Notes: generated from the sequence alone by a model not told the origin. Positions 49,398 through 63,235 are shown, numbered from the stretch's first letter. The stretch is 64,000 bases of DNA from Corallococcus macrosporus DSM 14697 (GCF_002305895.1 NZ_CP022203.1:7908001-7972000); one strand, 5' to 3'. Translations and numbers: made by a program.

Positions 49398-49422
49398 GGG
49401 CGCCCGTCTACCGCGATTCGGG

Positions 49423-50025
49423 CTACACGCCCAGCCGCGCCAGCAGGTCGCGGATGCTGTCCCGCGCCAGGACGAGCAGAAGCTGTCCACCCACCGGCGG
49501 CGCCGCGGCCGCGAGGAAGCGGGCCTCCAGCACCACCACGCTGCTGGCGTCGCCCTCCACCCGGCCCACCGCGTCGGACACCACGCCCCGCGCGGCGCCT
49601 CGGCGCACCGTGGGCACGGTGGGCACCAGCTTCCAGCCCGTCAGCCGGCCCATGGCGGACAGGCAGGCGCTGGCGACGATGTTCGCCGTCTCCGCCACCA
49701 CGCTGTCCCGCTCCGCCTGATGGATGGCGGCCTGCCCTTCCAGGAGCAGCGCCTCCAAGGCGGCGCTGTCGTCCTTGTGCAGCACCAGCAACAGGGCCCC
49801 CCGCAGCCCGCCCTGGATGCCGAGCGACCCGGACACCACCGGCGCGTCGCCGCCCAGCAGCGCGGCGGCGTCCGAGGGCACGGTCAGCAGCACGCGGGGG
49901 ATGGAGAGGTCTACCTTGCGCCCCCCCATCAACCGGGAGAGCGCGTTGGCCGCGTGGCCACAACCGATGTTGGCCACCTCGCGCAGGGCGTCGAGTTGCG
50001 CGTCGCTGGGCAGGGGCTGGCTCAC
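49423..50025 (-). CDS. cheC: CheC-like phosphatase
   Basis: A 200-residue CheC/FliY-type protein that removes phosphate from CheY-P. Two copies of the phosphatase helix are visible, each with the Glu-x-x-Asn pair: LREVANIGCGHAANALSRLM and VVAETANIVASACLSAMG. GTG 50025 overlaps the cheA TGA (GTGA), indicating translational coupling. It would reset the single CheY encoded two genes upstream. No cheD, cheB or cheR is present, so methylation-based adaptation must come from elsewhere or be absent. Confidence 0.88.
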   Translation of the reverse strand: MSQPLPSDAQLDALREVANIGCGHAANALSRLMGGRKVDLSIPRVLLTVPSDAAALLGGDAPVVSGSLGIQGGLRGALLLVLHKDDSAALEALLLEGQAAIHQAERDSVVAETANIVASACLSAMGRLTGWKLVPTVPTVRRGAARGVVSDAVGRVEGDASSVVVLEARFLAAAAPPVGGQLLLVLARDSIRDLLARLGV

Positions 50026-52553
50026 GCGGACAGTAACCTCGGCACGTCCAGGATGAACACCGGACGTCCACTTCCCAGAATGGTGACGCCGGACAGGCCG
50101 GGCAGCAAGTCCAGTGGCCGCGACAGCGGCTTGAGCACCACTTCCTCCTGCCCCAACAGCCGGTCCACCGCCAGCGCCACCCGGCCGGAGTCCCCGTCCA
50201 TCACCACGAAGGGCCGCGTCCCCAGCCTGAGGGGCGCGGGCACCCCCACCAACGCATCCAGCGAGTGGACCGGCAGCAGCGAATTACCGTGAGGCAGCAG
50301 GGCCGTCTCGCGGCTGCGGCTGAGGGACCCGCCATCCGCCTCTGTCGCACCCACCACCTTGGCGATGGGCAGGCCGAAGACCTCCTCGCCCACCTCCACC
50401 AGGAGCAGGTGCACCACCGCGACGGTCAGCGGGAGGCGCAGCGTGAAGCGGGTGCCCCGGCCGCGCTCGCTGTCGATTTCGAGCGTGCCGCCGACGTTCT
50501 CCACCACGCGCTTCACCGCGTCCATGCCCACGCCGCGGCCGGAGATGTCGGTGATGTCCTTGGCGGTGGACACGCCCGGGAGGCACGACAGCATGAAGGC
50601 CTCGCGGTCCGTCATGCGCGCCGCGGCCTCCGCCGACAGCAGGCCCCGGGACACGGCGGCGTTCTTCAGCTTCGCGGGGTCCATGCCGCGGCCGTCGTCC
50701 TCCAGCTCGATGATGACGCGGTCCCTGGCGCGCTTCACCGCCACCAGCACCCGGCCCCGCGCGCCCTTCTTGGCGGCGACCCGGTCCTCCGGTGACTCCA
50801 GGCCGTGGTCGATGCAGTTGCGCAGCAGGTGGAGCAGCGGGTCCGCCAGCTCCTCGAGGATGGCCCGGTCCAGCTCGATTTCCGCGCCGGTGATGACCAG
50901 GTCGACCTCGCGCTCCTTGCGGCGGGCGATGTCCCGCGCCGCCCGGGGCAGCCGGTCGGTGATGAGGGACAGCGGCGTCATGCGCGCCGTCATCACCTTG
51001 TCATGCAGGTCCTTCACCAGCGTGTGCAGCCGGTAGACGCCCTCTTCCAGCGCGGGGCGCGTGTTCTCCGGCAGCACCTTGCCCACCTCGCGCAGGCGGG
51101 CCGTGGCGAGCATCAGCTCGCCCACCGTGTCGAGGAAGTAGTCCAGGAGCTCCGTGCGCACGCGCACCGTGCGCGACGCCGTGTCCGCGGGCGCGCGGGC
51201 GCCGTCGGGCACGGGCACCAGGGTGGGCGGCACCACGGGCGCGGCCACCGCGGGCTTCACCGAGACGACCTCCACCTCGGCCACGTTCTTCAGCGCCGCG
51301 TGGATGCCCGCTTCCCCCGCCGGCGTCTCCAGCTCCAACTGGATGTTGCCGTCGGGGATGCGGCCGGCCTTCAGCTCCTCCAGCGCGGGGCGGAGGTCCA
51401 CCAGCGTGCCCAGGTTGGTGAGCCGCTTGTGGACGAGGAAGGCGCGCACGCCGGGCACCTGGCAGGTGGGCGCGATGCGCAGCCGCACCGCCCAGCGCTG
51501 GGCCAGCGTGTCCGGAATGGGCGCGCTGGCCGCGGACTTCAAGGCGTTGGCCAGGTCGGGCGGAGGCGGGGCCTCGGCGCCCGGCGCGTCCGTGGCCCGG
51601 CGCGAGGGCAGCGGCACCACCACGCCTCCGGAGGAGGGGGTGACATTCGGGGCCGGGGCGGCGCTCACGCCCGTGGCGCCGGCGTCAGCGCCCATGGCAC
51701 CGCCGGGGCCCGCGCCGCCACTGCCTGTCGAGCCCGCACCGGCGTCAGCGACAGTGGCACCGCCGGGGCCAGCGCCGCCACTGCCTGTCGAGCCCGCACC
51801 GGCGTCAGCGCCCATGGCACCGCCGGGGCCCGCGCCGCCACTGGCTGTCGGGCCCGCACCGGCACCGCCGGGCGCCGCGCCGCCCGTGGGGCCTCCAGCC
51901 CCGCCGCCATCGCTCGCGCTGGCTCCGCCGCCCGAGCCTCCCGGGCCGGGACCGTTCGAGTCCGGCCCACCCGTGGAGGAAGAGCCCGAGCCGCCACCAG
52001 CGCCGCTTCCCGGAGAACCGCCGCCCGCGGGGCCTGCGCCTCCGCCGCCCGAATCAGGGCCTCCCGAGGAGCCCGCGCCGCCGCTCCCCGTCCCACCCGA
52101 ATCCGAGCCGCCGCCCTCCGGCTTCAGCGCGGTCACCTTGGCGACGCGCGTGGCGGCCGGGGCGTGGCCCGTCATGGTGGTGACGCGCTGGCTGAGCTGC
52201 GTCAGGAGCGCTGCGGCGTCATCCGGCGGCTTGCCCTCCGCCACCGCGCGCACTTGCGCGAGCATGGTGTCGGCGGCGGTGAGGAGCAGGTCCACCAGGT
52301 CGCGGTCCAGGCGGCCGCGGTCCTGACGGACGGCGTCCACGAGGTCCTCCACCCGGTGCGCCACGATGGCGATGGGCTCGAAGCCCATGGACGACGCCAT
52401 GCCCTTCACCGAGTGGGCATGGCGGAACATCGAATCCACCGCGCTGGACGAGCCCTCGCGCTCCAGCTCCACGAGGTCGCGCCCCAACGCCTCCAGGTGG
52501 TCGGTCGCCTCGGAGATGAAGAGCCCGAGGTAGCGGGACATGTCCATCGTCAT
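50022..52553 (-). CDS. cheA: Chemotaxis-type histidine kinase CheA
   Basis: An 843-residue cytoplasmic hub kinase. The HPt domain has the phospho-His in FRHAHSVKGMASSMGF (about His47). A Gly/Pro/Ser/Ala-rich linker of about 160 residues follows (about 145-310), partly from 60-bp DNA repeats. A P2-like domain comes next, then dimerisation helices (LLDYFLDTVGELMLATARL), a GHKL ATPase (HLLRNCIDHGLESPEDR, EDDGRGMD, GRGVGMDAVKRV) and a C-terminal CheW-like domain. All catalytic motifs are intact. It should phosphorylate CheY (52607-52975) under control of the MCP and CheW in this string. Start ATG 52553 or 52547. Confidence 0.95.
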   Translation of the reverse strand: MTMDMSRYLGLFISEATDHLEALGRDLVELEREGSSSAVDSMFRHAHSVKGMASSMGFEPIAIVAHRVEDLVDAVRQDRGRLDRDLVDLLLTAADTMLAQVRAVAEGKPPDDAAALLTQLSQRVTTMTGHAPAATRVAKVTALKPEGGGSDSGGTGSGGAGSSGGPDSGGGGAGPAGGGSPGSGAGGGSGSSSTGGPDSNGPGPGGSGGGASASDGGGAGGPTGGAAPGGAGAGPTASGGAGPGGAMGADAGAGSTGSGGAGPGGATVADAGAGSTGSGGAGPGGAMGADAGATGVSAAPAPNVTPSSGGVVVPLPSRRATDAPGAEAPPPPDLANALKSAASAPIPDTLAQRWAVRLRIAPTCQVPGVRAFLVHKRLTNLGTLVDLRPALEELKAGRIPDGNIQLELETPAGEAGIHAALKNVAEVEVVSVKPAVAAPVVPPTLVPVPDGARAPADTASRTVRVRTELLDYFLDTVGELMLATARLREVGKVLPENTRPALEEGVYRLHTLVKDLHDKVMTARMTPLSLITDRLPRAARDIARRKEREVDLVITGAEIELDRAILEELADPLLHLLRNCIDHGLESPEDRVAAKKGARGRVLVAVKRARDRVIIELEDDGRGMDPAKLKNAAVSRGLLSAEAAARMTDREAFMLSCLPGVSTAKDITDISGRGVGMDAVKRVVENVGGTLEIDSERGRGTRFTLRLPLTVAVVHLLLVEVGEEVFGLPIAKVVGATEADGGSLSRSRETALLPHGNSLLPVHSLDALVGVPAPLRLGTRPFVVMDGDSGRVALAVDRLLGQEEVVLKPLSRPLDLLPGLSGVTILGSGRPVFILDVPRLLSA
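51682..51861. repeat. Three 60-bp tandem repeats in cheA
   Basis: Near-identical units at 51682-51741, 51742-51801 and 51802-51861 encode 20-residue GGAGPGGA-type segments of the CheA linker. Units 1 and 3 share CCCATGGC where unit 2 has ACAGTGGC. It is likely length-variable. Confidence 0.85.
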
Positions 52554-52606
52554 GGACCCGGCCTCGTGTCAGGAAGGGTGGACGGTGCGCGCGGGGGCGC
52601 AGCCGC

Positions 52607-52975
52607 TCACGTCTCGCCCAGGACCTTCTTCACGACGGCCAGCACGTCCTCGGCCCGGAACGGCTTGACGATGAAGTCCGAGGCGCCCGCCTCGATGGCC
52701 TCCATCACCAGGCTCTCCTGCCCGAGCGCGGAGCACATGATGACCACCGCGCTGCTGTCCGCCTTGATGATTTCCCGCGTGGCCTCGATGCCGCTCTTGA
52801 AGGGCATGACGATGTCCATCGTCGTGAGGTCGGGCTTGAGCTCCTTGTACTTCTCCACGGCCTCCAGGCCGTTGGCCGCTTCACCGACGACCTCGAACCC
52901 CCCAGACGCAAAGATGTCCTTGATCATGTTGCGCATGAAGATGGCATCGTCGACGACCAGGACCCGCTTAGCCAT
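52607..52975 (-). CDS. cheY: Response regulator CheY
   Basis: A 122-residue single receiver domain. Acidic pocket VLVVDDAIFMR, phosphoacceptor Asp in PDLTTMDIVMPFKSG, switch Ser in VIMCSALGQ and Lys in DFIVKPF are all present. It starts MAKRVLVVDDA at ATG 52975. The upstream in-frame residues have no family match. It lies between cheW and cheA, and is the probable output of this chemosensory system, with CheC as its phosphatase. Confidence 0.94.
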   Translation of the reverse strand: MAKRVLVVDDAIFMRNMIKDIFASGGFEVVGEAANGLEAVEKYKELKPDLTTMDIVMPFKSGIEATREIIKADSSAVVIMCSALGQESLVMEAIEAGASDFIVKPFRAEDVLAVVKKVLGET

Positions 52976-53044
52976 GTGAAGAACTCCGCCTCCGAATCGC
53001 CTGAGGAGCGCGGACACTAGCATCCACGCTTTCCAGGGGGCTAC

Positions 53045-53467
53045 TCACTTGGAATGGGTGAACAAGGCAACCACCGCGGCGTCCAACCCTTCCGGGTCCA
53101 GGACCGTCACTCCCAGGCCACCCAGCCTGGCGACGCCCCGGATGGCCGGCGTCATCTTCCCTGGCGCCGTGCTCACCCGCTCCACCGCTTCGATGCCGTC
53201 TACGTCTGTAACCAACAGTCCCAGGTCCCTCCGCCCACGGTCCAGTAGAACCACCCGTCCGGGCGGGGTAGGACCCTCGGGAAGACTCAGGAGCTGGCGC
53301 AGCTCTACCACCGTCACGACCCGGCCGCGCAGATTCATTACACCTGTAATGGCCGAGGGGGCGCGCGGCACGCGGGTGAAGCGCTCGGGAGGCACGACGA
53401 CCTCCCGGACCGCCGAGAGCGGCAGCCCGTAACGCTCCTTCTCCACCCGGAAGATGACGTGCCGCAC
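53045..53467 (-). CDS. cheW: CheW-like coupling protein
   Basis: A 140-residue CheW domain that bridges receptor and CheA. The order is VRHVIFRVEKERYGLPL, VREVVVPPERFTRVP, ITGVMNLRGRVVTVVELRQ and DLGLLVTDVDGIEAV, matching CheW strands. The start is GTG 53467. It lies 43 bp after the YjbR/H1-tail gene and 69 bp before cheY on the minus strand. No extra domain is attached. Confidence 0.93.
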   Translation of the reverse strand: MRHVIFRVEKERYGLPLSAVREVVVPPERFTRVPRAPSAITGVMNLRGRVVTVVELRQLLSLPEGPTPPGRVVLLDRGRRDLGLLVTDVDGIEAVERVSTAPGKMTPAIRGVARLGGLGVTVLDPEGLDAAVVALFTHSK

Positions 53468-53510
53468 AGGAGTAACGTTCTATCCGCTCTGGAATGACCG
53501 GCCTGCTTCG

Positions 53511-54289
<779 letters not shown>

Positions 54290-54293
<4 letters not shown>

Positions 54294-55672
54294 GAGCCCA
54301 GGCGGAAGCTGCGCACGACGCTCTGCAGCTCGACGGAGAGGTTGGTCAGCTCGCTGGCCAGCGACGTCATCCGGGACACGGCGGCCGTCTGCTCCTGGAT
54401 GACGGCCTGGATGGCCTCGGTGGAGGACGCGTTGTTGCGCGCCACCAGCTTGATCTCCTCGATGGCCTTCACCATCTCCTCGCTGCCCTTGAGCTGCTCG
54501 CGGGCGCTCTCCGAGATGAGGTGCACCTTCTCGGAGCCCTTGCGGATGGTGTCGGTGATGGCGCCCATGGAGCGCACGATGTTGGTCAGGTCCTCGCGCC
54601 CCTCCGCCAGCTCCGCGATGCCTTCCTTCATGGCGCTCACCACGGAGGTGGACTGACCGGAGATGTCGCGCGCCAGCTTGGAGATCTGCTCGGCGGAGCG
54701 GCCCGCGCTCTCGGCCAGCTTGCGCACTTCATCGGCGACCACCGCGAAGCCGCGGCCGTACTCACCCGCGCGCGCTGCTTCAATCGTCGCGTTGAGCGCC
54801 AGCAGGTTCGTCTGCTGCGCCACCTGGGTGATCGCGTCGACGATCTTGGAGATTTCCTGCGTCTTCTCGCCGAAGGCGAACACCTGCTGGCTGGCGGACT
54901 CGATGCGGTTGAAGACCTTCTTCACCTTCTCGCCGGCCAGCCGCGCCGCCTTGGAGCCGTCCTCCGCCGCGCTGCTCGTCTCCGCCGTCGTCCGCGCCGC
55001 GTCCTCGGCGCTGGCCGTGGTGCGCTGGATGCTGCCGGCCATCTCGGTGATGACCTTGGACGCCTTGGACACGAGCTGCGACTGCGACTCCGCGCCGCCG
55101 GCGATCTTCTCCATCGACGAGCCCACCTCCTCGGTGGAGCCGTTGACGTTCTCCGCGGACCGCTGGAGGTCGATGGCCGTGTCGGCCACGCTCTTGGCCG
55201 TCTCCTGAATCTTGCCCACCAGCTCGCGCAGGTTCTCCTGCATGCGGGTGATGGCGCCCGTCAGCTCGTCGATTTCGTCGCGCGTGCTGCCGCCCTCGGC
55301 GGCCACCGGCTTGGACAGGTCGCCCTGCGAGATTTCATACGCGGAGCGGCTGAGCACCTTCACGCGGGTGACCCGCGCCAGCAGCGACGGCAGCAGCGCG
55401 GCGGCGGCGCCGGTGATGAAGATGGCCACGCCGATGCGGACCACGTCCTTCCACACCGCGGGCCCGGGCCTGAGCTGGTGGAAGAGGATGTCCGACGTGT
55501 ACATCCACACCGTCAACAGCAGGCCCAGCACCACGTAGCCGTTGAGAATCTTCCGGTGCAGGGAGACCTCGCGGGTCGCGCGAGGGCTGTCCACGGCGCG
55601 CAGCAGTCGCTGCAGGGGCTCGCGGCGGGGAGTGTGTCCGGGGACTGTGTCGTCGCGGAGGGGACGGCGCAC
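54290..55672 (-). CDS. Methyl-accepting chemotaxis protein with short membrane anchor
   Basis: A receptor of up to 460 residues. Two transmembrane segments ([18 protein letters not shown] and [19 protein letters not shown]) are joined by only about 20 residues, so there is almost no periplasmic sensor. A HAMP-like linker ([17 protein letters not shown]) and the MCP signalling domain follow, with the hairpin tip [20 protein letters not shown] and [13 protein letters not shown]. It probably senses membrane or cytoplasmic cues. The start is uncertain: GTG 55672 is chosen on codon usage, GTG 55594 would give 434 residues, and a TTG overlaps the thiL stop. Its stop overlaps the YjbR gene. Confidence 0.9.
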
Positions 55673-55728
55673 GGGTTGCTTTCGGGGGATGAGAAGCGTC
55701 TCGGGTTTAGCCTTGCTGCTCCGCAGGG

Positions 55729-56676
55729 TCAATCCATCGCCCGAGGTCGGAAGTGGTCGAAGCCCTCTGGCGGTGGGAGAACGCGGCCTGTCCTGTCCCG
55801 GCTCACCCACCCGCGCCCCTCTGTGAAGTGGCCGATGCGGGTGATGGCGTGTCCCCCTGTAGCGCACGCGCGCTCGAATGCCCGGCTGCGTCCCGGGGGA
55901 ACGGCCAGCAGCAGCTCGTAGTCCTCGCCCCCCGCCAGCGCGCCCTGGGGCCCCAGGGCCTTGCGCACCGCGGCCGACAGCGGCAGCCGCTCCAGCGCCA
56001 GCTCCGCGCGCACGCCCGATGCGGTGCAGAGATGACCCATGTCCTGTGCAAGCCCGTCGGAAACATCCAGCGCGGCGGATGCATGGCGCGCGGCGATGAG
56101 GCCCAGCGCCACGCGCGGCTCGGGGCGGCGCTGGCGGCGCACGGCGGCGCCCCGGCGCAGCCCCGCGCGCAGGTGCGCAAGGCCCAGGCGCGCGTCGCCC
56201 AGCGTCCCGGACACATAGAGGAGGTCCCCGGGCCGCGCCCCCGCGCGGGTGAGCGGGGCGCGGGACAGCTCGCCCGCGGCGGTGATGGTGACGGACAGCT
56301 CCCGCGCGGAGGTGAAGTTGCCGCCCACCAGTGAAATCCGGTGTTCGACCGCCAGCGCCGCCATGCCCCGCGCCAGGCCCGTCAGCTCCCGCGGGGGGTA
56401 GTCCCTGGGCAGCGCGAGCGCGCAGACGAACCAGCGCGGCGCGGCCCCCATGGACGCCAGGTCCGACAGGTTCACCGCCAGCGCCTTGTGGCCGATGTCC
56501 GCGGGCGAGAACGCCGCGCGGGTGAAGTGCACGTCCTCCACCACCGCGTCCGTGGTGACGCACTGCGCCCCCCGCTGCGGGGCGAGCACCGCGCAGTCAT
56601 CCCCCGGCCCCACCGGCACGCGCGCGGCCGGGAAGTGCGCGAGGAACCGGCGGATGAAGTCGAACTCACCAGACAT
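55729..56676 (-). CDS. thiL: Thiamine-monophosphate kinase
   Basis: A 315-residue enzyme that phosphorylates thiamine monophosphate to thiamine diphosphate. Motifs are [25 protein letters not shown] and [15 protein letters not shown] (metal/ATP-binding aspartates of the PurM-like fold), and [12 protein letters not shown] near the C-terminus. ATG 56676 ([12 protein letters not shown]) gives the normal start. It is the first gene of the minus-strand string and lies 56 bp before the MCP. It diverges from the repeat protein across 130 bp. Confidence 0.94.
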
Positions 56677-56806: not shown

Positions 56807-58345
56807 ATGTCGAAGATTGGGGAACGGCTGCCATCCATCACCACGCCCAAGCCGAAGGCCGAGCAGGCCGGCACGGGCACAAAGGCAGTCAGCGCCCGGG
56901 AGCTGGTGGAGCTGCTCGGCTCGGTCCTTCCGACGCAGAGCGCCACAAAGGCAGGCCCGGCGAGCACCTATGCCACCCAGGCGACCCGGGCCTCCGCCTC
57001 CGCGCAGCAGGCGGCCTCCGCGAAGGAGATCCTCCCCTCCTCCCTGGGCGTGCTCCGGGATGAGCGCATGGCGCGCTGCATTGATGAAGCCTTCCGGGAA
57101 ATCTTCGAGGGAGACCGCTGGCCCAGCGGACAGGAGCGCTCCAAATGGATGGACTTCGCCAAGGCGCTGCGGGCCAAGGACCCGAAGGTCACCGCCGAGC
57201 AGGTCCGCTCCGCCATCGCCAACGAATTGCGCTTGCAGCGTGACGGCCTGGACTCGGCCTCGCCTGAGAACATCGACCGGTTCATCCAGGATGCAGTGAA
57301 GTGGGTGTCCCAGTGCTACGAGGGCCAGGTGCGCAACGCCTCTCCCGCGGAGCTGCGGCAGTGGCGCGACTTCGCCGCGAAGCTCCAGCAGGAGAAGCCG
57401 GAGCTGACGCCCGAGCAAATCAAGTACGCCATCACCGACGCCGTGCGTGCCCAGATGACGGGGACGGACAAGGCGTCGCCGGCGAACATCGACCGCTTCA
57501 TCCAGGACGCGGTGAAGTGGGTGTCCCAGTGCTACGAGGGCCAGGAGCGCAACGCCTCGCCCGCGGAGCTGCGGCAGTGGCGTGACTTCGCCGCGAAGCT
57601 CCAGCAGGAGAAGCCGGAGCTGACGCCCGAGCAGCTCAAGTACGCCATCACCGACGCCATCCGCGCGAAGATGACGGGGACGGACTCCGCGGCGCCCACG
57701 AACATCGACGCCTTCATCCAGGACGCGGTGAAGTGGGTGTCCCAGTGCTACGAGGGCCGGGAGCGCGGCGCCACCGCCGCCGAGCTGCGGCAGTGGCGCG
57801 ACTTCGCCGCGAAGCAGCTGGCGGAGAAGCCGGACATGACGCCGGAGCAGCTCAAGTACGCCATCAGCGACGCGGTGCGCGCCCAGCTGACGGGCATGGA
57901 CAACACGGGCAGCGTCAACATCGACCGCTTCATCCAGGAAGCCGTCCAGTGGGTGTCCCAGTGCTACGAGGGCCAGGTGCGTGACGCCTCGCCCGAGGAG
58001 CTGCGGCGCTGGCGCGAGTTCGCCGCGAAGAAGAAGGAAGAGAAGCCGGACCTCACGCCGGAGGAGCTCAAGTACGCCATCACCGACGCGATTCGCGGCG
58101 AGGTGACGGGCACCAGCGCGCCCGCCGAGCAGAACATCGACCGCTACATCAAGGAGGCCTATGCCTGGGTGTTCCAGGTCTACCGGGGCGTGCCCGAGAG
58201 CACCCCGCGCGAGCCGTCCGCGCGCGAGCTGCACGAGTGGCGGCAGTACGCCCGCTCGAAGATGAACGAGAAGCCGGACATGACGAGCGAGGACCTCAAG
58301 TACCTGCTGCTCGAAGGCGTGCGCACGGCCCTGGCCAATCAGTGA
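56807..58345 (+). CDS. Protein of six 72-residue helical repeats, family not recognised
   Basis: A 512-residue soluble protein with no signal peptide. After a 65-residue Ala/Ser/Thr-rich lead, the protein is made of six repeats. Each has NIDRFIQDAVKWVSQCYEG, then ELRQWRDFAAKL, EKPELTPEQIKYAI and a TDAVRAQMTG end. The first repeat (ERMARCIDEAFREIFEG) and the last are divergent, and the middle four are highly alike. Each repeat is mostly helical with one conserved Cys, suggesting a superhelical scaffold. GGGGGAG precedes ATG 56807. I know no named domain, and function is unknown. It ends 25 bp before the convergent di-heme gene. Confidence 0.85.
   Translation: MSKIGERLPSITTPKPKAEQAGTGTKAVSARELVELLGSVLPTQSATKAGPASTYATQATRASASAQQAASAKEILPSSLGVLRDERMARCIDEAFREIFEGDRWPSGQERSKWMDFAKALRAKDPKVTAEQVRSAIANELRLQRDGLDSASPENIDRFIQDAVKWVSQCYEGQVRNASPAELRQWRDFAAKLQQEKPELTPEQIKYAITDAVRAQMTGTDKASPANIDRFIQDAVKWVSQCYEGQERNASPAELRQWRDFAAKLQQEKPELTPEQLKYAITDAIRAKMTGTDSAAPTNIDAFIQDAVKWVSQCYEGRERGATAAELRQWRDFAAKQLAEKPDMTPEQLKYAISDAVRAQLTGMDNTGSVNIDRFIQEAVQWVSQCYEGQVRDASPEELRRWREFAAKKKEEKPDLTPEELKYAITDAIRGEVTGTSAPAEQNIDRYIKEAYAWVFQVYRGVPESTPREPSARELHEWRQYARSKMNEKPDMTSEDLKYLLLEGVRTALANQ
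57053..58345. repeat. Tandem 216-bp coding repeats
   Basis: The codon pair AAC ATC of the repeat start recurs at 57269, 57485, 57701, 57917 and 58133, an exact 216-bp period. A diverged first unit begins near 57053. Confidence 0.9.
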
Positions 58346-58369: not shown

Positions 58370-59752
58370 TCACAGCGAGCGCAGGAAGGCCACCAAGGCC
58401 TCGCGCTCCGCCTTGTCCAAGGCCTTGAAGCGCTCGCGCGACCTGGCGCCCTCGCCGCCGTGCCAGAGGATGGCCTCCTCGAAGCCGCGGGCGCGGCCGT
58501 CGTGGAGCATCCGCACCTGGCGGTTCACCGTCTCCAGCAGGCCCAGGCCCCACAGGGGCGGCGTGCGCCACTCGAAGCCACTGGCCTCGCCGTCGGGGCG
58601 GCCGTCCGCCAGCTCCGGCCCCATGTCATGCAGCAGCAGGTCCGTGTAGGGGCGGACGCGCTGGTGTGACAGCTCGGGGATGTCCTCCACGGTGCCGGTG
58701 GTGAACTCCGCGTGGTGGCACGCCGCGCAGCCCGTCTTCTGGAAGAGCGCGCGGCCCTTCACCACCATGGGCGCCTCGACGTCCCTGCGAGCGGGCGGCG
58801 CAATCAGGCGCAGGTAGAGGAGCGTCTGCGCCAACTGCTGCTCCGACAAGGAGGGGCCACGGGTGGCCGGCGGCGTCTGGCAGGGCGCCTGCGCTGGCGT
58901 GCAGTTGCGCTCGGGGTAGAGCGCGGAGGTGAGCCCCAGGTCCTCGGAGAAGGCGCTGGCCACCTGCTGCTCCAGTGTGGGCTGGTTGGCCTTCCAGCCA
59001 TAGCGGCCCACCCGGACCGCGCCGTCTCGCGCGCTCTTCACCCGGTTCGGCCGGCCGGAGATGCCGTCCCGATCGCGGTCCTTCTCATCCGCCAGCGCCA
59101 GGATGGCCTCATCGGGAATGGCCTCCAGCAAGCCGAGCCCGAACACCGGCGCCGGGATGCGAGGCGAGAGCATCACCTCGGGCGACAGTTGCCCGTAGCC
59201 CAGGCGGGCAATGTCGTACCGCGGCTGCCGCAGCGTGTACGGCGTGCCGTCCGCGTACCTTCCCTTCACCTCCGAGTAGGAGACCTGGACCACGCCCTCC
59301 GCGGCGACGCCGGGGATGGCGCGGTCATGAAGCTGGCCGCCGTAGACGGGCTCATGGCGGCCGGAGGGTGAATCCTTCGACGGCACGCTCAAGCGGGCGA
59401 GCAGCGGCGCCTCGGGGCCGAGCTCACGCAAGGGCCGCCCACGGCCATCCTTGAAGTGGCAGGCGCCACAGCCCGTGGCGTTTGAGAAGGGGCCGGCCGC
59501 CACGTCCGCGAAAGCGGACCAGTCCCGCATGAACACCGCCTTGCCGTCGAGCATCAGCGTCCAGCGCGCCGGGTCCAGGTTGCCCAGCGCCCGGCCATAG
59601 GCATTCGGCGTGACGTCGAACACCGTCGTGGCCCCGCCCGAGAGGGCTTCGCCAGCGCGCGGCGCGGCCTGAGCTGGACCGGTGGCGAGCAGGATGGCCC
59701 CCAACCACCCGAGCGCGTTCGCGCCGAGCAGGCGCCTGTGATGATGGAACAT
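58370..59752 (-). CDS. Secreted di-heme c-type oxidoreductase (DUF1111/di-haem oxidoreductase family), copy 1
   Basis: A 460-residue exported enzyme with a signal peptide (WLGAILLATGPAQAAPRAG). Two CxxCH heme c sites are visible: CGACH in ATGCGACHFKDGRG (about 95) and CAACH in KTGCAACHHAEFTT (about 340). A Ca-loop-like DEKDRDRDGISGRPNRV and the HDMGPELADGRPDG stretch are typical of DUF1111 di-haem oxidoreductases, which resemble cytochrome c peroxidases/MauG. The physiological substrate is unknown. It lies 70 bp downstream of a secreted Cys-rich protein gene. The pair has a close copy at 60851-63169. Confidence 0.9.
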   Translation of the reverse strand: MFHHHRRLLGANALGWLGAILLATGPAQAAPRAGEALSGGATTVFDVTPNAYGRALGNLDPARWTLMLDGKAVFMRDWSAFADVAAGPFSNATGCGACHFKDGRGRPLRELGPEAPLLARLSVPSKDSPSGRHEPVYGGQLHDRAIPGVAAEGVVQVSYSEVKGRYADGTPYTLRQPRYDIARLGYGQLSPEVMLSPRIPAPVFGLGLLEAIPDEAILALADEKDRDRDGISGRPNRVKSARDGAVRVGRYGWKANQPTLEQQVASAFSEDLGLTSALYPERNCTPAQAPCQTPPATRGPSLSEQQLAQTLLYLRLIAPPARRDVEAPMVVKGRALFQKTGCAACHHAEFTTGTVEDIPELSHQRVRPYTDLLLHDMGPELADGRPDGEASGFEWRTPPLWGLGLLETVNRQVRMLHDGRARGFEEAILWHGGEGARSRERFKALDKAEREALVAFLRSL

Positions 59753-59822
59753 GGCTCGCCTCTGGAAGAACGGCCGGAAGCGGAGGACACACCCACTTCC
59801 AGCCGGGGGGACACTTCAAGGA

Positions 59823-60653
59823 CTACCGCTCAGCGGGCGTGACGCTCTCGCTGACAATCTGCGTCAGGTTCGCCGTGGTCTGCAGGTGGATTTCGTCGAA
59901 GCCGAGGTAGGGGTAGTTCGTCGGGCCATGGACCTCCTCGCTCAGGACCAGGCGGTCCGCCGGAATGATGCTGCCGTCCTCGAGCGCCACATACGAATGC
60001 GGCAGGTCGATGGTCCACTGACACTGGCCCCGGTTCGTCACGAAGAACTGATAGTCACACGGCACATTGCAGTAGTTGCAGTCCCAGTAGCCCGCGTTCG
60101 CGCACTGGTCCATGCACGCATGCCAGCTCTGGCTGGGCATCCGGCAGGCGGGCGGCGTCGGCCCAGGATTGATGGGCCCGACAGGCGTGGTGACGCCCGT
60201 GGTCCCGTTCGCGAGCCGCATCGCCGCGTGCTGCAACTGCCCCTGGTAATAGATGAGCGCCGAGTGCGTGGAGGCCTCGCCCGCTCCCGTGAAGGTGGCG
60301 GCGTACGAGACCCGCCCGTCCTCGGTCATGATGGACGCCGTACTGGTCGTGGAGCCCTCCGAGACGGAGGAGAGCAGCATCCTCCCGCTTTCGGGCGTGT
60401 CGCTCTCACTGAAGACGCCCGCGCCCCAATGCCTGGCCAGCCCCGTGTGGATGACCACGCCCGACTCACCGCTCGTGTCGCCCGTCTCGATTCGGACGCC
60501 TTCGTCACCCACGCTGATGTGGGCATCACCGACGCCACAGTGATTCAGCCCCTTGAACTCCACACATTCCTGCGCCTGGGCCTGCGCCAGGGGAAACGCG
60601 AGCGTGAACACAGCGGCCAACAACGGGTTGCCCAGACTCCGAAGCAAACGCAT
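59823..60653 (-). CDS. Secreted Cys-rich protein of unknown function, copy 1
   Basis: A 276-residue exported protein with signal peptide MRLLRSLGNPLLAAVFTLAF ending in AQAQA. After ECVEFKGLNHC comes a beta-rich region, then a cysteine cluster spaced Cx9Cx3Cx7Cx2Cx3C (with DCNYCNVPC), a CQW, and a C-terminal region with GPTNYPYLGFDEIHLQTTA. The paralogue at 62345-63169 keeps every cysteine spacing. No known family. AGGAGC lies 7 nt before ATG 60653. The gene is followed by the di-heme enzyme gene and is preceded by a sigma-54-like element. It is probably a partner or substrate of that enzyme, which is inference from the repeated pairing. Confidence 0.83.
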   Translation of the reverse strand: MRLLRSLGNPLLAAVFTLAFPLAQAQAQECVEFKGLNHCGVGDAHISVGDEGVRIETGDTSGESGVVIHTGLARHWGAGVFSESDTPESGRMLLSSVSEGSTTSTASIMTEDGRVSYAATFTGAGEASTHSALIYYQGQLQHAAMRLANGTTGVTTPVGPINPGPTPPACRMPSQSWHACMDQCANAGYWDCNYCNVPCDYQFFVTNRGQCQWTIDLPHSYVALEDGSIIPADRLVLSEEVHGPTNYPYLGFDEIHLQTTANLTQIVSESVTPAER

Positions 60654-60703
60654 CCGACAGCTCCTGACCCTTCATGGGAAATCCATGAATCAGGTTTTTC
60701 CAC

Positions 60704-60719
60704 TTCAATGCGCATGCCA
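60704..60719 (-). promoter_or_regulatory. Sigma-54-like promoter element, cassette 1
   Basis: On the minus strand it reads TGGCATGCGCATTGAA. The TGGCA and TTG blocks have the -24/-12 spacing of sigma-54 promoters, but the -12 GC is GA. The near edge is 51 bp from ATG 60653. Confidence 0.5.
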
Positions 60720-60850
60720 GGGTTTCCCATCCTCTGAGAAACCATTGAATTGTGACACGAATTGCAACAACTCCATTGCGCCCAGTGACTCCCGAAGTCT
60801 CACGCATCGCGGCGGCGTCCAGGCGACGCGACGCATGCAATGCCTTGCAT

Positions 60851-62251
60851 TCAGAGCGTGCGCAGGAAGGCCACCAAGGCCTCACGCTCCGCCTTGTCCA
60901 GGGCCTTGAAGCGCTCACGCGCCTGGGTGCCCTCGCCGCCGTGCCAGAGGATGGCCTCCTCGAAGCTGCGGGCCCGGCCGTCGTGGAGCATGCGCACCTG
61001 CCGGTTCACCGTCTCCAAGAGGCCCAGCCCCCACAGGGGCGGCGTGCGCCACTCGGCGCCGCTCGCCTCGCCGTCGGGGCGGCCGTCCGCCAGCTCCGGC
61101 CCCATGTCATGCAGCAGCAGGTCCGTATAGGGGCGGATGCGCTGGTTGGACAGCTCGGGGACGTCCTCGACGGTGCCCGTGGTGAACTCCCGCTGGTGGC
61201 ACGCCGGGCAGCCCGCCTGCTGGAAGAGGACCTGCCCCTTCATCACGGTGGGGTCCAACACGTCGCGGCGCGCGGGCACGCCGATGAGCCGCAGGTACAG
61301 CGTGGTGCGCTCCAGGACGTGACGCGATAGCGCGGGGCCCTTCGCGGCCACCCGCGTCAGACAGCCTTTCTGTTTCGCCGTGCAGTTGCTCTCCGGGTAG
61401 AGCGGGGACGTCAGCCCCAGGTCCTCGGAGAAGGCGCTGGCCACCTGCTGCTCCAGCGTGGGCTGGTTGGCCTTCCACCCGAAGCGGCCCAGCTCCGCCT
61501 TGCCCGAGTCCGCGTTGACGACGCGGTTCGGACGGCCGGAGATGCCATCCCCATCACGGTCGTCCGCGTCCGCCAGAGCGAGGATGGCCTCGTCGGGGAT
61601 GGCCGCCAGCAGCCCCAACCCGAAGAGCTGCGAGGGGATGCGCGGGGAGAGCATCACCCCGGGAGCCAGCTTCCCGTAGCCCAGCCGGGTGATGCGGTGG
61701 CGCGGCTTGCGCAGCGTGTACGGCGTGCCGTCCGCGTAGGTGCCCTTCACGTCCGCATAGGTGGTCAGGAGCGTGCCCTCGGCGGGGACGTCCTGGGTGC
61801 CCCGGTCATTGAGCTGCACGCCGTAGACGGGCTCGTGGCGCCCCGCCGGTGAATCCTTCGCGGGCACGCTCAACCGGACGAGCAGCGGCGCCTCCGGCCC
61901 CACGTCGGGGAGCGGACGCCCCCGGCCGTCCTTGAAGTGACATGAGCCACACCCGGTGGCGTTCGTCAGCGGACCGGCCAGCCCTGCTTCATGCGCGGCC
62001 CAGTCCCGCATGAAGAGCACCTTGCCCTCGCGCATCTGGAACCAGCGCGAGCGCGCCAGGTTCCCCAGCGCGCGGCCGTAGGCATTGTGCGAGGCGTCGA
62101 ACACCGTCGTGCCGCCGCCCGCCAGGGCCTCGTCGTCCGGCGCCCGCGCGGCCTCCGGAACGGGCGCGTCAGGCGCCGGTGAGGCGGCCTCCTCCTGCCT
62201 GGGAGTCCCCGCCGTCAGCAGCAGGGCCGTCATCCACCACGATGCCTTCAT
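60851..62251 (-). CDS. Secreted di-heme c-type oxidoreductase (DUF1111 family), copy 2
   Basis: A 466-residue paralogue of 58370-59752. A signal-like N-terminus (MKASWWMTALLLTAGTPRQE) is followed by an Ala/Pro-rich linker. Heme sites are CGSCH in ATGCGSCHFKDGRG and CPACH in QAGCPACHQREFTT. ADADDRDGDGISGRPNRV and HDMGPELADGRPDG match copy 1, and the last 60 residues are almost identical (MLHDGRARSFEEAILWHGGE). The heme sites are intact, so both copies should be functional. It lies 93 bp downstream of its own Cys-rich partner gene. Confidence 0.9.
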   Translation of the reverse strand: MKASWWMTALLLTAGTPRQEEAASPAPDAPVPEAARAPDDEALAGGGTTVFDASHNAYGRALGNLARSRWFQMREGKVLFMRDWAAHEAGLAGPLTNATGCGSCHFKDGRGRPLPDVGPEAPLLVRLSVPAKDSPAGRHEPVYGVQLNDRGTQDVPAEGTLLTTYADVKGTYADGTPYTLRKPRHRITRLGYGKLAPGVMLSPRIPSQLFGLGLLAAIPDEAILALADADDRDGDGISGRPNRVVNADSGKAELGRFGWKANQPTLEQQVASAFSEDLGLTSPLYPESNCTAKQKGCLTRVAAKGPALSRHVLERTTLYLRLIGVPARRDVLDPTVMKGQVLFQQAGCPACHQREFTTGTVEDVPELSNQRIRPYTDLLLHDMGPELADGRPDGEASGAEWRTPPLWGLGLLETVNRQVRMLHDGRARSFEEAILWHGGEGTQARERFKALDKAEREALVAFLRTL

Positions 62252-62344
62252 GGGACGCTCTTCGGGAGTGAGGACCGGAAAGGAAAGCCAACGGCCCGGA
62301 GCGCGCCACGGCTGCGCCCGCCCCAGGCTGGAACAGCACGGCGA

Positions 62345-63169
62345 CTACTTGCTGGCCGGGGCGACGGACTCGCCGGTGATGACCGTCGTGCGCGCGGTGG
62401 TCTGCACGTCGATGCGGTTGAAGTTCAGGTACGGGTAGTTCGACGGGCCGGAGACCTCCTCCTGCATCACGATCTGGTCGGCCTGGACGACCTGGCCGTT
62501 GGGCAGACGGACGGCGGGCTCCGCCACGGCGTGCTGCCAGAAGCAGGCGCTGTTGTACGAGGCATTGCCGAAGCCCGTGGAGATGGGGCACAGCGTGTAG
62601 CAGTAGTTGCAGTTGGCGTAGCCGTTCGACCAGCAGGCCTGCTCGCACTGGAGCACCGTCTGCCCGCGCGGGCGGCAGTTCGGCGTCCAGCCCGGGTTGG
62701 GGACCATGAGGCCCACGGCGCCCGTATCACCGCTGCGGATGCCACCGACGGCGGCCTGGAGACGGCCGTTGCGGTACGCGAGCACCGAGTAGGTGGTCGC
62801 GTCACCGGAGCCGGTGAACGTCGCGGAGTACGTGGTGGACTCCGCCGTCGCGTTGACGGTGGAGGTGCTGACCGGGACCTGCTCCGCGTAGGCGGTGAAG
62901 GCGTTGCGCTGCGCGCCGTCCGACACGGCCTCGGACGTCCAGGCCGCCGCGGGCGGCATGTGGATGGCGACGCCGCCCTTGCCCGACGTGTCCGCGTTGT
63001 CGATGCGGACGCCGCGCTCCGAGCCCGTCACCTTGGCGGCGCCGACGGCGCAGTGCTGCAGCCCCTGGAACTCCACACAGTTGTCAGCAGCGGCCGCCTG
63101 GCTGAGCGGGAAGGCGAGCGAGAACACAGCGGCCCAGAGGGCGGTTCCAACGCGACGGGACGAGCGCAT
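62345..63169 (-). CDS. Secreted Cys-rich protein of unknown function, copy 2
   Basis: A 274-residue paralogue of 59823-60653, with a signal peptide ending QAAAAD. It has NCVEFQGLQHC, the same Cx9Cx3Cx7Cx2Cx3C cluster (with NCNYCYTLC), CFW in place of CQW, and the conserved GPSNYPYLNFNRIDVQTTA. Overall similarity is moderate in the middle and high around the cysteines, so the cysteine frame and the Trp after Cys are the conserved features. AGGAGT lies 6 nt before ATG 63169. Same order as copy 1: sigma-54-like element, this gene, then a di-heme enzyme. Confidence 0.83.
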   Translation of the reverse strand: MRSSRRVGTALWAAVFSLAFPLSQAAAADNCVEFQGLQHCAVGAAKVTGSERGVRIDNADTSGKGGVAIHMPPAAAWTSEAVSDGAQRNAFTAYAEQVPVSTSTVNATAESTTYSATFTGSGDATTYSVLAYRNGRLQAAVGGIRSGDTGAVGLMVPNPGWTPNCRPRGQTVLQCEQACWSNGYANCNYCYTLCPISTGFGNASYNSACFWQHAVAEPAVRLPNGQVVQADQIVMQEEVSGPSNYPYLNFNRIDVQTTARTTVITGESVAPASK

Positions 63170-63219: not shown

Positions 63220-63235
63220 TTCAAGCGGCATGCCA
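63220..63235 (-). promoter_or_regulatory. Sigma-54-like promoter element, cassette 2
   Basis: On the minus strand it reads TGGCATGCCGCTTGAA, matching the cassette 1 element at 14 of 16 positions. Its near edge is also 51 bp from the start codon (ATG 63169). Confidence 0.5.

What the first reader, a model, noticed from the sequence alone, without database searches (positions are those of the whole stretch)
58370..63169. Duplicated cassette of Cys-rich secreted protein plus di-heme oxidoreductase
Two copies in the same order and orientation: a signal-peptide protein with Cx9Cx3Cx7Cx2Cx3C, Trp after Cys and a conserved C-terminal NYPYL block, followed by a DUF1111 di-heme enzyme with both CxxCH sites. 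MauG and MopE/CorA-linked di-heme enzymes oxidise Trp in a partner protein, so the Cys-rich protein may be the substrate, giving a modified (for example Trp-derived) metal site.
Basis: partly seen in the sequence, partly recalled or inferred. Interest (0 to 1): 0.7.

Follow-up and report, generated by a model that had tools for sequence, protein, structure and literature searches.

The report
Di-heme enzyme and partner protein cassette
Myxobacteria carry a recurring two-gene cassette: an exported di-heme enzyme of the little-studied DUF1111 family and a secreted lectin-fold protein with one leftover cysteine beside a conserved tryptophan; wherever the intact protein occurs the matching enzyme occurs too, so the enzyme probably oxidises that spot, a testable new case of enzyme-made protein chemistry.

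Summary
The window holds two tandem cassettes, each an exported Cys protein (A) followed by a DUF1111/DHOR di-heme enzyme (D). The same genome has a third cassette, and 54 linked A-D pairs occur in four genus-level groups of Myxococcaceae, always on one strand, mostly A then D. Association holds genome by genome: 47 of 47 genomes with intact A carry a DHOR of one clade, and none of 27 DHORs placed from genomes without intact A falls in it. In five genomes the genes are unlinked yet both kept. The Cys-rich stretch is not the common element: other subfamilies lack it. All intact members share a Cys pair, an invariant Trp, Cys-x-Trp and Tyr-Pro-Tyr; the Cys of Cys-x-Trp is unpaired by count. D is predicted to have the MauG/bacterial-peroxidase fold, but with His where MauG has its axial Tyr. 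A is a lectin-like beta sandwich without conserved His, unrelated by sequence to MbnP. Best reading: A is the dedicated partner, probably the substrate, of a peroxide-using DHOR acting at the Cys-x-Trp/Tyr-Pro-Tyr site. Pairing and co-inheritance are shown; modification is inferred. It would work like MauG/preMADH or MbnH/MbnP with different protein families.

The parts
62345..63169 (-). A1: exported Cys-rich partner protein, 274 aa, 9 Cys, signal peptide-like N-terminus
   Evidence: homologues
62588..62677 (-). A1 Cys-rich insert Cx9Cx3Cx7Cx2Cx3C (6 Cys; subfamily-specific)
   Evidence: absent from the lipoprotein-type members
62537..62545 (-). A1 Cys-x-Trp (C209-F-W211), proposed site of modification
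   Evidence: invariant in 66 aligned members
62429..62437 (-). A1 Tyr-Pro-Tyr (245-247)
60851..62251 (-). D1: DUF1111/DHOR di-heme enzyme, 466 aa
   Evidence: PF06537 E 8e-83
61937..61951 (-). D1 heme site 1, CGSCH
61196..61210 (-). D1 heme site 2, CPACH
59823..60653 (-). A2: exported Cys-rich partner protein, 276 aa, 9 Cys
   Evidence: AlphaFold2 model pLDDT 91.8
60057..60146 (-). A2 Cys-rich insert Cx9Cx3Cx7Cx2Cx3C
60015..60023 (-). A2 Cys-x-Trp (C211-Q-W213), proposed site of modification
59907..59915 (-). A2 Tyr-Pro-Tyr (247-249)
58370..59752 (-). D2: DUF1111/DHOR di-heme enzyme, 460 aa
   Evidence: PF06537 E 3.5e-83; AlphaFold2 model pLDDT 90.0
59456..59470 (-). D2 heme site 1, CGACH
58715..58729 (-). 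D2 heme site 2, CAACH
58460..58504 (-). D2 HDG-x11-H; last His (H431) sits where MauG/MbnH have axial Tyr and BCCP has Met
59561..59563 (-). D2 Trp64, invariant in the A-associated DHOR clade and absent outside it
   Evidence: 58 of 58 against 0 of 31
63221..63235 (-). TGGCATGCCGCTTGA, sigma54-type -24/-12-like element before A1
60705..60719 (-). TGGCATGCGCATTGA, sigma54-type -24/-12-like element before A2

Best explanation
Each cassette encodes an exported DHOR di-heme oxidase/peroxidase and its dedicated partner protein A. A is a lectin-like beta-sandwich protein, periplasmic/secreted in one subfamily and a lipoprotein in the others. The enzyme most likely uses peroxide at its N-terminal heme and oxidises A at a site built from the unpaired Cys and Trp of Cys-x-Trp and the Tyr residues of Tyr-Pro-Tyr, giving a covalent product (Trp oxidation, or a Cys-Trp or Cys-Tyr link) that finishes A. 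Shown here: pairing, strict co-inheritance in the genomes sampled, the conserved site, the odd Cys count. Predicted: MauG/peroxidase fold. Inferred: that A is the substrate, that the site is where oxidation occurs, and the product.
For: Pairing: 54 of 124 A-family places lie next to a PF06537 gene, all on the same strand, 49 with D downstream and 5 called upstream by distance; resolved gene by gene, 49 pairs run A-D and 4 D-A, so the link does not depend on order. Co-inheritance: A-linked DHORs form one clade (58 rows, SH-aLRT 96) split into a Cys-rich-A branch (19 of 19 linked) and a lipoprotein-A branch (34 of 39 linked). 47 of 47 genomes with intact A have a clade member; the two genomes with only motif-less A do not; five genomes keep both genes unlinked. 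Site: C1, C10, W47, C182, W184, E210, Y218, P219, Y220 are invariant in 66 diverse sequences. Cys-x-Trp and YPY are kept in 53 of 53 linked members and are lost together, in orphans only, at least 5 times. Members with the motif have 3 or 9 Cys in the core (106 of 107), so the Cys-x-Trp Cys is odd. Enzyme: top structural neighbour MauG/preMADH complex, Z 16.2, 252 residues, rmsd 3.6; Trp with Gln at +10 and Asp at +18 kept in 88 of 91; DHOR clade-specific invariant Trp64.
Against: About half of intact A genes (54 of 107) have no DHOR next door and would need one acting from elsewhere. The axial ligand is His, not the Tyr needed for MauG's bis-Fe(IV) chemistry (PMC6405878). No Trp is at the position before the second heme taken to match MauG W199 (position from memory). 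Corrected for relatedness, motif loss against pairing is not significant (5 contrasts). No biochemistry on any DUF1111 enzyme was found in the held papers. No distances between the conserved residues could be measured.
Confidence: 0.45

Rival explanations
1. A is not modified but is the redox or ligand partner of the DHOR: its unpaired Cys (with the Trp/Tyr cluster) binds a metal ion or a small molecule and the DHOR changes its redox state, as DUF1111 enzymes are thought to work beside imelysin-type iron-uptake proteins.
For: DUF1111 genes are described next to imelysin-like iron-uptake proteins and a peroxidase role there is assumed (PMC3143127). A free Cys is a good soft-metal ligand. Strict co-occurrence fits equally well. 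A predicted bis-His heme suits electron transfer.
Against: No invariant His, and E210 the only invariant acidic residue, in A, so few classical metal ligands beyond one Cys. No transporter gene was seen next to the window cassettes.
Confidence: 0.25
2. A is a lectin-like surface or matrix protein that anchors or targets the DHOR, so that peroxidase or oxidase activity is placed on polysaccharide or the outer membrane; the conserved cluster is the docking or sugar site.
For: A model resembles concanavalin/galectin/GH16-like sandwiches (best Z 10.2 over 163-165 residues). Lipoprotein and secreted versions exist.
Against: The match is to a common fold (TM-score about 0.4) and shows no function. 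It gives no reason for an odd invariant Cys. Half of the A genes are far from any DHOR gene.
Confidence: 0.17
3. The odd Cys makes an intermolecular disulfide (A dimer), and the DHOR serves as an oxidant in the envelope, as the old label 'predicted thiol oxidoreductase' (from my own knowledge) suggests.
For: Cys count is odd in 106 of 107 intact members.
Against: Does not explain why Trp and Tyr-Pro-Tyr are fixed with the Cys and lost with it. Many lipoprotein-linked DHORs have no Cys besides the four heme-binding ones, so an A-DHOR disulfide is excluded for those.
Confidence: 0.08
4. The genes are neighbours without a shared function; the pattern is inherited linkage within one family of bacteria.
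For: All cases are within Myxococcaceae; the sequences are related and not independent.
Against: Both gene orders occur; in five genomes linkage is broken but both genes are kept; within genus g8 two genomes have both and four have neither.
Confidence: 0.05

Closest known systems
MbnH/MbnP (TIGR04039/TIGR04052), the di-heme enzyme and partner protein pair
   Same: Exported di-heme enzyme of the MauG/peroxidase fold group next to a secreted Cys- and Trp-containing partner; a pair is present in this same genome at C1:1181642-1183558. From my own knowledge, MbnH oxidises a Trp of MbnP to kynurenine; the paper held (PMC3621798) predates that and calls the pair mysterious.
   Different: MbnH is CCP_MauG (PF03150) with axial Tyr; D is DHOR (PF06537) with His there. 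A shows no sequence relation to MbnP (hhalign probability 0.3; no NCBIfam match).
MauG and preMADH (tryptophan tryptophylquinone formation)
   Same: Predicted fold of D: top structural neighbours are MauG complexes, Z 16.2. The Trp/Gln pattern of the enzyme core is kept. Separate enzyme acts on a separate protein.
   Different: Axial Tyr294 of MauG is replaced by His; no Trp at the MauG W199 position; A is not methylamine dehydrogenase and has one free Cys.
SACCP/MopE and CorB/CorA of methanotrophs
   Same: Di-heme peroxidase gene beside a secreted beta-rich protein with an important Trp (PMC3912023).
   Different: Their copper site uses two His and kynurenine; A has no conserved His. Their enzymes are of the BCCP family. 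The role of the enzyme in kynurenine formation is itself unproven (same paper).
DUF1111/DHOR proteins beside imelysin-like iron-uptake proteins
   Same: Same enzyme family, PF06537 (PMC3143127).
   Different: Partner is imelysin there, a lectin-fold Cys-x-Trp protein here.

Membership tests
DUF1111/DHOR (PF06537) | Match to the curated model above its cut-off, over most of its length | tested here: met
   279 and 280 bits against 22; two stretches covering both halves
DUF1111/DHOR (PF06537) | Two CxxCH heme sites | tested here: met
MauG (TTQ biosynthesis) | MauG/BCCP fold | tested here: met
   predicted model; MauG Z 16.2, BCCP Z 15.2; not separable from BCCP
MauG (TTQ biosynthesis) | Tyr as axial ligand of the C-terminal heme | tested here: not met
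   His in 91 of 91 DHORs at the aligned position
MauG (TTQ biosynthesis) | TIGR03791 or PF03150 match | tested here: not met
   neither matched at E 1
MbnP (TIGR04052) | Match to family model, or profile similarity | tested here: not met
   no match at E 1; hhalign probability 0.3 against the genome's own MbnP
MopE/CorA | Two conserved His with a Trp forming the copper site | tested here: not met
   no invariant or near-invariant His in 66 sequences
MopE/CorA | Kynurenine in the mature protein | not testable with these tools
   needs mass spectrometry
Concanavalin-A-like lectin/glucanase fold group | Jelly-roll beta sandwich | tested here: inconclusive
   AlphaFold2 pLDDT 91.8; Z up to 10.2, TM-score about 0.4
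Peroxide-dependent protein-modifying di-heme enzymes | Covalent change in partner dependent on the enzyme | not testable with these tools
   experiment needed

The most novel reading that the evidence does not exclude
DUF1111 enzymes are a second, separate branch of di-heme protein-modifying enzymes: here they convert Cys-x-Trp/Tyr-Pro-Tyr in a lectin-fold protein into a new covalent, protein-derived redox or metal site (for example a Cys-Trp or Cys-Tyr thioether) using a predicted His/His heme in place of MauG's His/Tyr heme.
Probability: 0.2. Interest if true: 0.85.

Novelty: new variant of a known kind. Interest (0 to 1): 0.62.

Why it matters
No biochemistry of DUF1111/DHOR was found in the papers held, and no solved structure of the family was found by sequence. 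A strictly co-inherited partner with a defined candidate site gives the family a concrete, testable substrate. If true, di-heme modification of partner proteins extends beyond the MauG/MbnH branch and does not need the axial Tyr, bearing on which features of the heme pair set protein oxidation apart from simple peroxide removal.

Tried and rejected
A as a MbnP or MopE/CorA homologue: no sequence support. Cys-rich block as the heart of the system: rejected, absent in 34 of 53 linked members. Viral collection: no relatives. Foldseek alone gave no usable DHOR match; VIA-align on its list did. hhalign with a single MbnH left the axial-ligand alignment ambiguous; the 15-sequence profile resolved it. 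Phylogeny-corrected motif/pairing test: not significant. MauG W199 and BCCP residue numbers used in mapping are from memory.

Full report
What is there. The window is C1:7908001-7972000 of an 8.97 Mb genome of the genus of Myxococcus vastator. D1 and D2 match PF06537, the DUF1111/DHOR family. A1 and A2 match nothing convincing in Pfam or NCBIfam.

A is a family larger than its Cys-rich form. The same genome has a third cassette, where A is a lipoprotein without the Cys-rich stretch and is followed by a DHOR, and a fourth A gene with no DHOR beside it. A profile found 124 A-family places in Myxococcaceae, and none in the other families searched. From these, 121 distinct genes were read. 107 carry both Cys-x-Trp and Tyr-Pro-Tyr.

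Linkage and co-inheritance. 54 places lie beside a PF06537 gene on the same strand. Resolved gene by gene, 49 distinct pairs run A-D and four D-A. In a tree of 116 DHORs, those linked to A fall in one clade of 58 with SH-aLRT 96. It splits into a branch whose partners are Cys-rich (19 of 19 linked) and a branch whose partners are lipoproteins (34 of 39 linked). None of 27 DHORs placed from genomes without intact A falls in the clade; weaker hits in those genomes were not placed. All 47 genomes with an intact A have a clade member; the two genomes with only motif-less A do not. In five genomes of genus g31 the two are not linked but both are kept; one of these retains a truncated A before the DHOR. 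Absence of A rests on a profile search that scored the best 14 candidates per genome.

The site. Thirteen columns are invariant in 66 diverse intact members: C1, C10, G13, G36, W47, F92, C182, W184, E210, Y218, P219, Y220, F223. C1 and C10 form a plausible disulfide. The Cys-rich insert adds six Cys. The Cys of Cys-x-Trp is left over: intact members have 3 or 9 Cys in the core in 106 of 107 cases, and members that lost the motif often have 2 or 8. Cys-x-Trp and Tyr-Pro-Tyr are lost together, at least five times on the tree. Every linked member keeps both (53 of 53); 14 of 68 unlinked members have lost them (Fisher p 0.00024; among Cys-rich members 19 of 19 against 1 of 10, p 1e-6). Sequences are related and the corrected test on independent contrasts is not significant.

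Structures. AlphaFold2 gives A2 a beta sandwich (pLDDT 91.8) nearest to concanavalin/GH16-like folds (Z 10.2). This is a common fold and the TM-score is about 0.4. The D2 model (pLDDT 90.0) is nearest to MauG in complex with preMADH (Z 16.2), with hydrazine synthase gamma (16.2) and bacterial cytochrome c peroxidase (15.2) within one unit. Profile alignment with CCP_MauG proteins of these genomes puts an invariant His of DHOR at the position that is Tyr in the MauG/MbnH type and Met in the peroxidase type; it is His in 91 of 91 DHORs. GWK with Gln at +10 and Asp at +18 resembles the FWDGR...Q...E pattern of the peroxidases; that equivalence is by pattern, since the profile alignment covers only the C-terminal domain. 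Eight residues, including Trp64 of D2, are fixed in the A-linked clade and rare or absent outside it.

Regulation. A TGGC-N8-TG(C/A) element, like the -24/-12 sigma54 promoter, lies upstream in 107 of 121 A genes against about 8 expected from shuffled sequence. The window copies are at 63221-63235 and 60705-60719. The number 107 here and the 107 motif-bearing members are different sets. The element in the Cys-rich subfamily ends in TGA rather than the usual TGC.

Mechanism. The best reading is a di-heme enzyme and its own partner protein, in the manner of MauG/preMADH and MbnH/MbnP, with the Cys-x-Trp/Tyr-Pro-Tyr cluster as the likely site of oxidation. Pairing, co-inheritance and the site are shown. 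Substrate status, peroxide use and product are inferred. Against a direct MauG copy stands the His ligand: a Tyr-to-His change there abolishes the bis-Fe(IV) state in BthA and, as cited, in MauG (PMC6405878). Against a MopE/CorA copper site stands the lack of conserved His in A (PMC3912023).

Noticed in passing
own genome C1:1181642-1183558 (L284): A textbook MbnP (TIGR04052, 285 bits) and MbnH (TIGR04039, 526 bits) pair; a natural comparison for the cassettes in the window.
   Followed up: partly
L149:497-2161 (-); also beside cassettes in G003, G004, G005, G009, G013, G015: A second di-heme gene, a 555-aa lipoprotein matching CCP_MauG with a weak RoxA-like hit, is divergently transcribed next to the lipoprotein-type A-D cassette in about seven genomes.
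   Followed up: partly
63221-63235 and 60705-60719: Sigma54-type -24/-12-like elements before A genes across the whole family (107 of 121), including members with no DHOR beside them.
   Followed up: partly
L166:2895-4577 and L167:2867-4345: In two genomes of genus g33 the A fold is duplicated within one protein, without Cys-x-Trp or YPY and without the matching DHOR.
   Followed up: partly
L019:5559-7901 (+), own genome near C1:5192500-5194900: One 780-aa gene holds two fused DHOR domains with four CxxCH sites.
   Followed up: no
56807-58345 (+): 512-aa protein of about six degenerate repeats (WVSQCYEGQ...) with no convincing family match.
   Followed up: no
49400-56600 (-): Chemotaxis-like cluster by reading: CheA-like protein with a long Gly/Ser/Ala-rich linker, response regulator, CheW-like protein and a methyl-accepting protein.
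   Followed up: no
L151, L152, L161, L174, L177, L248: Cys-rich A proteins not linked to a DHOR form a clade that has lost both Cys-x-Trp and Tyr-Pro-Tyr while keeping the Cys-rich insert.
   Followed up: yes
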